NCBI GenBank assembly: GCA_021799915.1
Contig: JAJYZN010000098.1
Span: 1-9,857, forward strand
Direction: 5' to 3'
DNA from: Actinomycetes bacterium
GTDB lineage: Bacteria; Actinomycetota; Acidimicrobiia; Acidimicrobiales; RAAP-2
DNA: 9,857 bases
Shown here: positions 6,629-9,537 of the stretch, piece after piece
Layout of the letters: every line of letters begins with the position of its first letter
How positions within the stretch are numbered: position 1 is the stretch's first letter
Notes under the pieces: model-generated
Database searches by the model: none
Told to the model about the DNA's origin: nothing
The model's input: only the letters and a program-made list of their open reading frames with translations
Program-made: the position numbers and the translations under genes

Positions 6629-6710
6629 TGCCGACGCTACGGTCGTCGGGTGCCCGGCAGCCACGGGCTGGATGGGCTCGGATCGCCCTGGGTTGCGAGG
6701 AAGGAGTGCG

Positions 6711-8225
6711 ATGACCTCGGCGGAGAGCCCGGAACTGCTGCGCCGTGGGCTGCTCGTGGGCGGACGGGAGGTCCCGGCCGCGTCCGGCGGCACGCTCAGC
6801 GTCGTGAGCCCGGCGACCGGCCGGCCCGTCGCCGTGGTGGCCCGCGCCGAGCGGGAGGACGTCGACGCCGCCGTCCACGCGGCTCGCGAGGCGTTCGATG
6901 CCGGGACGTGGGGCGAGCTCCCGCCGGCACAGCGGGCGCGAGTGCTTCACCGGTTCGCCGACGGGATCGAGCGGAGACTCGAGGATCTCTACGTCCTGGA
7001 GAGCGTCAACAACGGGCGCCCAATCCGGGAGACCCGGGCACAGGTATCGCGGGTGCCCGAGTGGTTCCGCTACAACGCCGCGCTCCTGCTGGCCGATCGC
7101 AGCGACCTCATCCCGATCGCAGGCCCGTACCACTCCTACACGACCCGCTTCCCTCTTGGGGTCGTCGCGATCCTCTCGTCCTTCAATCATCCGCTGATGA
7201 TCGGCTCGAAGAGCCTCGCGCCCGCCCTGGCGACGGGCAACTCGGTGGTGCTCAAACCATCCGAGCAGACGCCGCTCACCTCCCTGCTGCTGGGAGAGAT
7301 CGCCGCCGACTGCGGGTTGCCACCAGGGGTGCTGAACGTGATCGTGGGGCTGGGATCGGTCGCCGGCGCGGCCCTGGCCGCACACCCCGACGTGTCGAAG
7401 GTGACGTTCACCGGGGGCACGGATGCCGGGCGCTCGGTGGCCATGGCAGCCGCCGCTCATCTCGCAAAGGCAACCGTCGAGCTGGGCGGCAAGTCTCCGG
7501 TGCTCGTCTTCGCCGACGCCGACCTCGAGGACGCCGTGCGGGGGGCTGCGTTCGCCGGGTTCGTGGCTGCCGGCCAGACCTGCATTGCCGGCACCCGGCT
7601 GCTCGTCCAACGCGAGGTGCACGACGAGTTCGTCGCCGGTCTGGTAGCGCAGGCGCTGACGCTGCGCGTCGGCGACCCGTCCTCACCGGATACCGACGTC
7701 GGTCCGGTCATCTCGGACCGCGCCCGCGAACGAATCCTCGACTACGTCCGGATCGGCTGCGCCGAGGGTGCCAGGGTGGCCGTCGGTGGTGGCGCCGCCA
7801 AGGTGGACGGGCTGGAGGGCGGCTTCTTTGTCGAACCGACCGTTCTCGTCGGGGTCACCAACCACATGCGGGTGGCGCGCGAGGAGATCTTCGGCCCCGT
7901 GCTCGTCGTCATCCCCTTCGACGACGAAGACGACGCGGTCGAGATGGCCAACGACTCGCCCTACGGGCTGGGGTCGGCGGTGTGGACGGGGAACGTCGCC
8001 AGAGCCCACCGGGTGGCGAACCGCCTTACCCACGGCATCGTCTGGGTGAACGACCACCATCGCCTCGACCCCGCGTCGCCCTGGGGCGGCGTCCGGGGCA
8101 GCGGGGTGGGGCGCGAGGGTGGATGGGAGTCGTTCCACGACTTCAGTCAGATCCGTTCGGTCACCGTCCGCATCGCCGAGGAGGGTGTCAACTGGTATGG
8201 CGGCGAGCACGGGCGGCTCAATTGA
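6711..8225 (+). CDS. NAD(P)+-dependent aldehyde dehydrogenase
   Basis: The 504-residue protein has the standard length for the ALDH superfamily, which oxidises aldehydes to carboxylic acids. The oxyanion Asn is N159 in 'LSSFNHP', followed by 'NSVVLKPSEQTP' for cofactor binding. 'FTGGTDAGR' is the Rossmann turn, E257 in 'VELGGKSP' is the general base and C291 in 'GQTCIAGTR' is the nucleophile. The E-C spacing of 34 is canonical. 'EEIFGPVL' and 'NDSPYGLGSAVWT' complete the C-terminal signatures. The ATG at 6711 is preferred over the in-frame ATG at 6672 because AAGGAG (6701-6706) precedes it and the conserved N-terminus starts here. It follows the PEP-synthase-like gene by 82 bases without a convincing terminator and overlaps the next gene by four bases. 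It presumably oxidises a semialdehyde made by its neighbours; the substrate is unknown. Confidence 0.93.
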   Translation: MTSAESPELLRRGLLVGGREVPAASGGTLSVVSPATGRPVAVVARAEREDVDAAVHAAREAFDAGTWGELPPAQRARVLHRFADGIERRLEDLYVLESVNNGRPIRETRAQVSRVPEWFRYNAALLLADRSDLIPIAGPYHSYTTRFPLGVVAILSSFNHPLMIGSKSLAPALATGNSVVLKPSEQTPLTSLLLGEIAADCGLPPGVLNVIVGLGSVAGAALAAHPDVSKVTFTGGTDAGRSVAMAAAAHLAKATVELGGKSPVLVFADADLEDAVRGAAFAGFVAAGQTCIAGTRLLVQREVHDEFVAGLVAQALTLRVGDPSSPDTDVGPVISDRARERILDYVRIGCAEGARVAVGGGAAKVDGLEGGFFVEPTVLVGVTNHMRVAREEIFGPVLVVIPFDDEDDAVEMANDSPYGLGSAVWTGNVARAHRVANRLTHGIVWVNDHHRLDPASPWGGVRGSGVGREGGWESFHDFSQIRSVTVRIAEEGVNWYGGEHGRLN

Positions 8226-8944
8226 CCGGGCTGCCCTCCGTCGACGGCCTGAGGATCACCCAAGACGACCAGGTTCTGCGCGTCACCATCGACCGCGGGG
8301 ACGACAACCTTGTGTCGATGGCGATGTGCGAGACCCTGACGGGCCTTCTCCTCCACCCTCCGGAAGGTTGCCACGTCATGCACCTGCGTGCTGAGGGAGG
8401 CCCTTTCTGCCTGGGGCGCGACCGAGGAGGAGACGACGTTGTCGTCCTTCGCCGGCAAGCCGAGACCCTCGTCGCTCTCAATCGGGCGTTGGCCGAAGGC
8501 CAGCTCGTCACCGTCACCGAGGTCGCCGGGGACGCCGCCGGGTTCGGTGTCGGCCTGGCGGCGCTGAGCGATGTCTCGGTGGCGGCAAGCTCGGCACGGT
8601 TCTGGTTCCCGGAGGTCGACGCGGGGCTCGCCCCGACGGTGGTGCTGGCATGGTTGCCCCGGGTGGTCGGCCGAAGGCAGGCGTTCCGCCTGACCGCCAC
8701 CGGAGCCCCGGTCGACGGAGAGGAGGCGGCGCGCCTCGGGCTCGTGACCCGGGTGGCAGACGACGACGCGCTCGGGGCCGCTGTACGGGCCGAGATCGAT
8801 GCATTGCTGGCCCGCCCGTGGCGGACCCACCTCGAGATTCGGGCTTTCCTGACCGAATCGGCCGGGGTCGATCCGGCGACCGTCGACCGCATGGCCGCCG
8901 ACCGTCTGGTGCTCGGATCCCTCCGGCTCGCCGGCGGGTCGTAG
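8222..8944 (+). CDS. Enoyl-CoA hydratase/isomerase (crotonase) family protein, one catalytic Glu missing
   Basis: The 240-residue crotonase-fold protein shows the first oxyanion-hole segment 'LRAEGGPFCLGRD', the second segment 'GDAAGFGVGLAALSDVSVA', then 'ARFWFPEVDAGLAP' and 'LPRVVGRRQAFRLTATGAPVDGEEAARLGLVTRV'. These match the family order. Aligned to rat mitochondrial enoyl-CoA hydratase, E164 is kept (E131 here) but the E144 position is Gly (G111), so classical hydration is doubtful. Isomerase, hydrolase or decarboxylase chemistry on an acyl-CoA is more likely. No ATG or GTG lies before the conserved start. The TTG at 8222 overlaps the TGA of the aldehyde dehydrogenase, and with no clear ribosome site, translational coupling is likely. 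It is the last gene of the row and a hairpin follows. Confidence 0.82.
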   Translation: MTGLPSVDGLRITQDDQVLRVTIDRGDDNLVSMAMCETLTGLLLHPPEGCHVMHLRAEGGPFCLGRDRGGDDVVVLRRQAETLVALNRALAEGQLVTVTEVAGDAAGFGVGLAALSDVSVAASSARFWFPEVDAGLAPTVVLAWLPRVVGRRQAFRLTATGAPVDGEEAARLGLVTRVADDDALGAAVRAEIDALLARPWRTHLEIRAFLTESAGVDPATVDRMAADRLVLGSLRLAGGS

Positions 8945-8957
8945 CCGGAGCAAGCGG

Positions 8958-8980
8958 GTGCCTCAGTGGATTCGAGGCAC
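8958..8980 (+). terminator. Hairpin after the crotonase gene, possible terminator
   Basis: GTGCCTC (8958-8964) and GAGGCAC (8974-8980) form a perfect 7-bp stem around a nine-base loop, starting 14 bases after the stop. No T-run follows. Its position in the 104-base gap suggests it separates the catabolic row from the peroxiredoxin gene, but attenuation or chance is possible. Confidence 0.4.
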
Positions 8981-9048
8981 GTACCCGACGGCTGGAAGAT
9001 CGCAACAGCGCCGAGCGTGCGCGGAGAAAGGGAGAGGAGACGGAGTAG

Positions 9049-9537
9049 ATGGCTGACAACCAGGGGGCGAACCCCGGCGATGGGAGCGCGGCGCCGGACT
9101 TCACGCTCCGGCACACCTTCGAACGGGAGGTGAACCTGCGGACGGCGCTTCGAGCCGGGCCGGTGCTCCTGGCTTTCTACGTCTTCGATTTCGGCTCCAT
9201 ATGAACGCGCGAACTGTCCCAGTTGGGACAGTGGAGCGGTGAGATCGGGCGTCTCGGGGGCCAGGTCTTCGGCATCGCAGTTACGGCCACCTTCTCGCAG
9301 CAGGCGTTCGCTGGCTCATTGGGGATCGACTTCCCGCTGCTCTCCGACTGGGACCGCACCACGTGCGCCGCATATGGCGTCCGCTACGACGTCTGGAAGG
9401 GGCACGCCGGGCTGGCGAAGCGATCGCTGTTCGTCGTCGACCGGGAGGGCGTCGTCCGGTACCGGTGGGTCACGGACGACGCTGCTGTGGTACCCGACCT
9501 CGCGGAAGCCGTGACCCTGCTGGCCGATCTGACCTGA
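9049..9537 (+). CDS. Selenocysteine-containing peroxiredoxin (AhpC/TSA, AhpE-like), Sec encoded by in-frame TGA at 9202-9204
   Basis: Read through one TGA, the frame gives a 162-residue peroxiredoxin, a thiol/selenol peroxidase that reduces H2O2, organic peroxides or peroxynitrite in the cytoplasm. N-terminal 'AAPDFTLRHTFEREVNL' and 'GPVLLAFYVFDFGSI' lead to the TGA at codon 52, followed by 'TRELSQLGQW'. This is the family's '..F....C-T-x-E-L' active site, with TGA exactly where the peroxidatic Cys belongs. Downstream are 'GIDFPLLSDWDRTTCAAYGV' and 'AKRSLFVVDREGVVRYRW', with the active-site Arg at R125. The size is close to M. tuberculosis AhpE (153 residues). C106 is the only cysteine. The Pro and Thr of the usual P-x3-T-x2-C are V45 and G49. 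The ATG at 9049 has GAGGAG (9034-9039) nine bases upstream. TGA is an ordinary stop elsewhere in the window, so recoding must be local; a SECIS-like hairpin follows. A nonsense mutation is the alternative, but the intact conserved frame argues against it. Confidence 0.85.
9202..9232 (+). promoter_or_regulatory. Sec codon (TGA 9202-9204) with putative bacterial SECIS hairpin
   Basis: ACTGTCCC (9213-9220) pairs perfectly with GGGACAGT (9225-9232) around the loop AGTT (9221-9224). The stem starts nine bases after the TGA and the loop lies about 17 bases after it. Bacterial SECIS elements sit inside the coding sequence just after UGA, with a short stem, a small apical loop about 16-37 bases away, and a G among the first loop bases. 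All of these hold here. CGC (9208-9210) could add a lower helix with GCG (9236-9238) across an internal loop. There is no bulged U as in E. coli fdhF. The partner would be SelB with tRNA-Sec, neither of which is in the window. Confidence 0.7.

What the first reader, a model, noticed from the sequence alone, without database searches (positions are those of the whole stretch)
9049..9537. Peroxiredoxin with selenocysteine (TGA) at the peroxidatic position
An in-frame TGA sits exactly where the catalytic Cys of an AhpC/TSA peroxiredoxin should be, between 'FYVFDFGSI' and 'TREL'. The frame on both sides is intact and carries conserved peroxiredoxin features, including the active-site Arg and the 'FPLLSD' and 'FVVDREG' blocks. 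TGA is a true stop in seven other genes here, so this is site-specific recoding rather than a code change. Standard gene calling would report two fragments (about 9049-9204 and a TTG-started 9223-9537) and miss the enzyme. Sec-containing peroxiredoxin-like proteins are known in bacteria, but this one in an actinobacterial-type background appears easy to overlook.
Basis: partly seen in the sequence, partly recalled or inferred. Interest (0 to 1): 0.92.

Follow-up and report, generated by a model that had tools for sequence, protein, structure and literature searches.

The report
Actinobacterial selenocysteine peroxiredoxin, rebuilt active site
A small enzyme of a peroxide-removing family in actinobacteria is built around the rare amino acid selenocysteine, written with a stop codon, so standard gene finding cuts it in two; in its relatives the stop codon and its decoding tRNA change together.

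Summary
The finding holds. The frame 9049-9537 carries one in-frame TGA (9202-9204) where AhpC/TSA peroxiredoxins have the peroxidatic Cys. Counting the window, I found 26 members with a stop codon there: TGA in 22, TAG in 4 (Blastococcus, Geodermatophilus). Wherever tRNA-Sec was found its anticodon matches: UCA in 18 TGA genomes, CUA in 4 TAG genomes; 3 TGA genomes gave none. SelA, SelB and SelD are present in nearly all genomes tested. A hairpin nine bases after the codon (9214-9231) shows strong codon bias (Leu TTG in 21 of 21 rows with Leu, 5.4% elsewhere), so it is a good SECIS candidate. The Sec members form one clade (99/98) without Cys members among 62 sequences compared. Nine of 24 members have no Cys. 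A UAG-Sec AhpC of Blastococcus saxobsidens was published in 2017; whether it belongs here is unresolved. The window's genome is not held; selenium incorporation and activity are untested. Verdict: a convincing selenoprotein gene, new variant of a known kind.

The parts
9031..9039 (+). purine-rich Shine-Dalgarno-like sequence GGAGAGGAG
   Evidence: read directly from the sequence
9049..9201 (+). upstream part of the selenoprotein gene (51 residues, ends FYVFDFGSI)
   Evidence: same frame conserved in relatives; F43-G49 invariant in 24 rows
9202..9204 (+). TGA read as selenocysteine (residue 52), at the peroxidatic Cys position
   Evidence: stop codon here in 26 family members, TGA in 22 and TAG in 4; Cys in 36 of 36 other relatives compared
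9214..9231 (+). SECIS hairpin candidate: 7-bp stem CTGTCCC / GGGACAG, loop AGTT
   Evidence: 24 of 24 rows have at least 5 contiguous pairs; codon-choice bias inside it; changes on both sides at 3 pairs of 21 aligned rows
9205..9537 (+). downstream part of the selenoprotein gene, with its own TGA terminator
   Evidence: Pfam AhpC-TSA; Arg125 in 62 of 62 sequences
6672..8225 (+). aldehyde dehydrogenase, neighbour kept in some relatives
   Evidence: Pfam Aldedh; found in L001, L002, L006 and, on the other side of the gene, in L011
8228..8944 (+). enoyl-CoA hydratase/isomerase family gene directly upstream
   Evidence: Pfam ECH_1; found in L001, L002, L006 and L011

Best explanation
The gene encodes a 162-residue selenoprotein of the AhpC/TSA (peroxiredoxin) superfamily, nearest in fold to PrxQ/Bcp and AhpE enzymes. 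TGA 9202-9204 is decoded as selenocysteine by the SelB system, with the hairpin at 9214-9231 as SECIS. Sec52 sits in the first turn of the active-site helix and most likely reduces a peroxide by a one-Sec mechanism: Sec is oxidised to selenenic acid and then reduced by an external thiol. Shown here: the frame, the conserved stop, the matching anticodons and the machinery in relatives, the hairpin's codon bias, the fold model. Inferred: decoding in this organism, peroxidase activity, and the reductant (mycothiol/mycoredoxin or thioredoxin, by analogy with AhpE, recalled). The confidence is for the selenoprotein claim; for the peroxidase claim it is about 0.7.
Against: No genome is held for the window. 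Folding energy against synonymous shuffles was weak: mean z -0.63 over 24 rows; only 1 of 24 rows had none of 200 shuffles as low, the window had 11 of 200. In the slid-partner control of the hairpin, counts of double changes and pair types are as high for some slides as for the structure; only percentage paired and covariation score stand out. One Sec-type genome (G012, a fragmented MAG) gave no SelB or tRNA-Sec and only a partial SelA, and G013 and G018 gave no tRNA-Sec. The active site lacks the Pro and Thr/Ser of peroxiredoxins, so peroxidase activity is not assured. One database homologue (P0013) has Arg at residue 52.
Confidence: 0.93

Rival explanations
1. It is a true selenoprotein but not a peroxidase: with Pro and Thr/Ser gone, Sec52 serves another redox task, such as thiol-disulfide or selenenylsulfide exchange.
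For: V at -7 and G at -3 in 26 of 26 Sec members, against P and T/S in 36 of 36 Cys relatives; no Cys at +5 in 24 of 24 and no Cys at all in 9 of 24 rows examined.
Against: The active-site Arg is kept in 26 of 26 and the fold matches peroxiredoxins over nearly its whole length; a lone Sec without partner Cys does not look like a CxxC-type oxidoreductase.
Confidence: 0.2
2. The TGA is a real stop: a broken gene, or two separate products, the second starting at TTG 9223.
For: An ORF from TTG 9223 exists and databases hold it as a protein.
Against: 26 members keep both halves in frame, with two different stop codons matched by the tRNA anticodon. The TTG taken as start overlaps the hairpin loop and is conserved as Leu codon +7 in 21 of 24 rows, TTC in 3.
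Confidence: 0.03
3. General stop-codon read-through or a wider code change rather than site-specific Sec insertion.
For: Both TGA and TAG appear at the same place within one family.
Against: TGA ends 6 other genes in the window, the gene's own terminator is TGA in 18 of 24 rows, and each codon goes with a tRNA-Sec of matching anticodon.
Confidence: 0.02

Closest known systems
AhpE (1-Cys peroxiredoxin, Mycobacterium tuberculosis; PDB 4x0x, 1xxu)
   Different: Cys instead of Sec; keeps P and T of the signature
Archaeal PrxQ/Bcp (PDB 3hjp, 2cx3, 2ywn)
   Same: best sequence matches and best fold match
   Different: P and T/S kept in all three; the A. pernix enzyme 2cx3 has Cys at +5, here S, T or A in 24 of 24 rows (Leu by alignment in the further row L096)
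Sec peroxiredoxins PrxU (NF040737) and Prx-SUH (NF045827)
   Same: peroxiredoxin or thiol peroxidase families with Sec members (PrxU as Sec type by name and recall; Prx-SUH listed with CxxU in PMC13188914, passages seen)
   Different: 40.4 and 22.3 bits against cut-offs of 270 and 298; the same review gives known Sec peroxiredoxins a PxxxTxxU motif, here VxxxGxxU
AhpC with Sec-UAG in Blastococcus saxobsidens DD2 (PMC5330540, passages and a figure legend seen)
   Same: AhpC-type selenoprotein of a Geodermatophilaceae species, UAG codon, CUA tRNA-Sec, predicted SECIS
   Different: its sequence could not be seen, so identity with this clade is unresolved; a wider TGA-bearing actinobacterial family is not mentioned in the passages read

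Membership tests
AhpC/TSA (Pfam PF00578) | score above the curated cut-off | tested here: met
   86.3 bits against 26, residues 12-138, with C at position 52
Peroxiredoxin (peroxidase sense) | reactive residue at the peroxidatic position at the start of the active-site helix | tested here: met
   position 52 aligns with Cys in 36 of 36 Cys relatives; helix 50-68 in the model
Peroxiredoxin (peroxidase sense) | PxxxT/SxxC signature | tested here: not met
   V at -7 and G at -3 in 26 of 26 Sec members
Peroxiredoxin (peroxidase sense) | active-site Arg | tested here: met
   Arg125 in 62 of 62
Peroxiredoxin (peroxidase sense) | reduces hydroperoxides | not testable with these tools
   needs an enzyme assay
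Bacterial selenoprotein | in-frame stop with tRNA-Sec of matching anticodon in the genome | tested here: met
   concordant in 22 of 22 relatives' genomes with a tRNA-Sec found, 3 more gave none; the window's own genome is not held
Bacterial selenoprotein | SECIS hairpin after the codon | tested here: met
   conserved hairpin with codon bias and covariation score above the controls; energy test alone weak
Bacterial selenoprotein | selenium in the full-length product | not testable with these tools
   needs 75Se labelling or mass spectrometry
PrxU (NF040737) | curated score cut-off | tested here: not met
   40.4 bits against 270
Prx-SUH (NF045827) | curated score cut-off | tested here: not met
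   22.3 bits against 298
AhpE | one-Cys (here one-Sec) mechanism without resolving Cys | tested here: inconclusive
   9 of 24 have no Cys in the 40 residues before and all residues after the Sec; 15 of 24 have Cys106

The most novel reading that the evidence does not exclude
A Sec-only branch of the PrxQ/AhpE superfamily whose active site was rebuilt around selenocysteine: Sec replaces not just Cys but the catalytic help of Pro and Thr/Ser, so the enzyme works by chemistry different from ordinary peroxiredoxins, and the family lived through a natural UGA-to-UAG change of its key codon.
Probability: 0.4. Interest if true: 0.72.

Novelty: new variant of a known kind. Interest (0 to 1): 0.56.

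Why it matters
It is a natural test of why an enzyme needs selenium: a clade without Cys members in the set compared, in which having Sec goes with losing two residues held to be essential for peroxiredoxin catalysis. Its UGA and UAG members give a matched pair for studying how the Sec codon changes. It is also hidden from annotation: databases hold it as two fragments, and the C-terminal piece, without the active site, is often named a peroxiredoxin.

Tried and rejected
Broken gene, two-product gene and code change were considered and rejected (see rivals). Folding energy of the hairpin region against synonymous shuffles gave only weak support; codon choice and paired changes carried the argument. 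RNAalifold on the ungapped alignment found only 4 pairs, in part because some rows have a 5-base loop. A scan of viral contigs found no relative. Plasmid records with a match (99) were all under 60% identity. A comparison of neighbouring genes showed no partner gene shared by all members; the aldehyde dehydrogenase and enoyl-CoA hydratase genes recur in window, L001, L002, L006 and L011; by eye many clusters are antisense or shadow ORFs. The structure model's coordinates were not in the Python box, so no distances around Sec52 were measured. Searches of the paper library for this lineage turned up PMC5330540 as the only direct precedent I saw; papers other than PMC5330540, PMC13188914 and PMC5029168 (passages) were seen as listings only. 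The 2016 paper on Sec recoding (10.1002/anie.201511657) is not held and is known to me by recall; I take it to be reference 56 of PMC5330540.

Full report
Observation. The frame 9049-9537 has one internal TGA at codon 52 (9202-9204); translated through, it gives 162 residues. With Cys at 52 the protein matches Pfam AhpC-TSA at 86.3 bits against a cut-off of 26, over residues 12-138. TGA ends 6 of the 8 other protein genes that I delimited in the window; the other two end in TAG.

Homologues. A protein search gave 1891 hits, of which the best 120 are listed; 119 of these are 96-142 residues long and lack the FDFG stretch that precedes the codon, and the one full-length entry, P0013, has Arg at position 52. 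A second search with residues 10-75 gave 6 hits, all upstream pieces ending exactly before the stop. In genome contigs 22 loci encode relatives: 16 have TGA at position 52, 4 have TAG (Blastococcus and Geodermatophilus) and 2 have Cys. In a class survey 10 of 395 genomes had a match at E <= 1e-25, all 10 with one in-frame TGA, 3 of them new. In a phylum survey 12 of 396 had one: 4 with one in-frame TGA (2 new) at 194 bits or more, and 8 without stop at under 100 bits. In the family of Geodermatophilus 4 of 112 genomes carry a member, all TAG, the same four as before; 105 others have only weaker matches, the best at 85 bits. One of these was flagged with a TGA, which proved to be its terminator. 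With the window this makes 26 members, 22 TGA and 4 TAG.

Machinery. tRNA-Sec was found and its anticodon read in 17 of the 20 Sec-type genomes: UCA in 13 TGA genomes, CUA in the 4 TAG genomes (ARAGORN labels the CUA ones tRNA-Pyl). The 5 further TGA genomes all have UCA. G012, G013 and G018 gave none; the G013 match over the cut-off is a tRNA-Ser. So codon and anticodon agree in 22 of 22. SelB is over its cut-off in 13 of 20 Sec-type genomes; G001-G006 score 219-234 bits against 242, each on one contig with SelA and SelD; G012 has none. SelA is over its cut-off in 22 of 23 tested, with a partial hit in G012. SelD is over its cut-off in 22 of 23, missing in G015. I did not test SelA, SelB or SelD in G615 and G685, nor SelB in G216, G243 and G278. 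The Cys genome G021 also has SelA, SelB and SelD over their cut-offs, but no tRNA-Sec was found in it; G022 has no SelA or SelD match at E <= 1e-30. The window's own genome is not held; its nearest relative L001 shares the hydroxyacid dehydrogenase, aldehyde dehydrogenase and enoyl-CoA hydratase genes upstream at 78-86% identity.

SECIS. Nine bases after the TGA begins CTGTCCC-AGTT-GGGACAG (9214-9231). The 51 bases from the TGA fold at -22.2 kcal/mol, z -3.12 against dinucleotide shuffles. All 24 rows examined have at least 5 contiguous pairs next to an AGTT loop, 22 of 24 at least 6, some with a 5-base loop. On 21 aligned rows 82.3% of cells pair and 3 pairs show changes on both sides; 1 of 500 shuffles reached the covariation score, 3 of 500 the number of such pairs. 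Sliding the partners lowers the percentage paired (to 42-58%) and the score, but not always the number of double changes or pair types. The strongest sign is codon choice: Leu +7 is TTG in 21 of 21 rows with Leu (the other 3 rows have Phe TTC), where TTG makes up 5.4% of 261 Leu codons elsewhere in these genes; Gly +8 is GGA 13, GGG 9, GGC 2, where GGC is 51% elsewhere. Against this, folding energies beat synonymous shuffles only slightly (mean z -0.63). These rows are related, so the counts are not independent events.

How it probably works. Sec52, held by the peroxiredoxin fold and, by homology, near the conserved Arg, attacks a hydroperoxide and becomes a selenenic acid, which an external thiol reduces. 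A member without any Cys cannot form an intramolecular selenenylsulfide, so a one-Sec cycle like that of AhpE is the simplest. The lost Thr/Ser and Pro mean that this step could be tuned to another substrate, or may not be peroxide reduction at all. Activity and reductant are inference.

What is known. Sec peroxiredoxins are known in bacteria: 91 in 78 organisms in a 2016 survey (PMC5029168, passages seen), with a PxxxTxxU motif according to a 2026 review (PMC13188914, passages seen). A 2017 paper reports an AhpC selenoprotein with a UAG codon in Blastococcus saxobsidens, and CUA tRNA-Sec in Geodermatophilaceae (PMC5330540, passages seen). This family does not reach the cut-offs of the two Sec peroxiredoxin models that turned up in NCBIfam. 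I therefore call it a new variant of a known kind, not a new kind.

Noticed in passing
L108 (G078 contig 17) 1169-1263 and L138 (G078 contig 11) 1533-1628: One Geodermatophilaceae genome holds two tRNA-Sec genes: one with anticodon UCA in lower-GC DNA (61-68%) near an ORF that looks, by eye, like a transposase, and one with CUA near the only SelB found at E <= 1e-60 (79% GC). Possible dual decoding, recent acquisition or a stray contig.
   Followed up: partly
L108-L137: A tRNA-Sec match is in 108 of 112 genomes of the Geodermatophilaceae family; of the 30 loci fetched, 8 have UCA and 22 CUA, so the change of Sec codon seems to have happened within this family.
   Followed up: partly
window 9199-9201 and the same place in relatives: The base before the Sec TGA is A in 11 of 20 TGA rows against 150 of 2760 third positions elsewhere; Ile there is the rare ATA in 8 of 10 (4 of 99 elsewhere). 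The 4 TAG rows have C. Possibly a 5' context effect on decoding.
   Followed up: partly
   Followed up: no
G243, G019, G278, G216, G020, G018, G012, G021 and a second, partial copy in G002: SelD itself carries one in-frame TGA in these genomes.
   Followed up: no
window 6672-9537: Aldehyde dehydrogenase, enoyl-CoA hydratase and the selenoprotein lie in the same order in L001, L002 and L006; in L011 the two genes follow the selenoprotein.
   Followed up: partly
L012 / G012: This MAG has the TGA gene but no SelB or tRNA-Sec found and only a partial SelA; misbinning or incompleteness is likely.
   Followed up: partly
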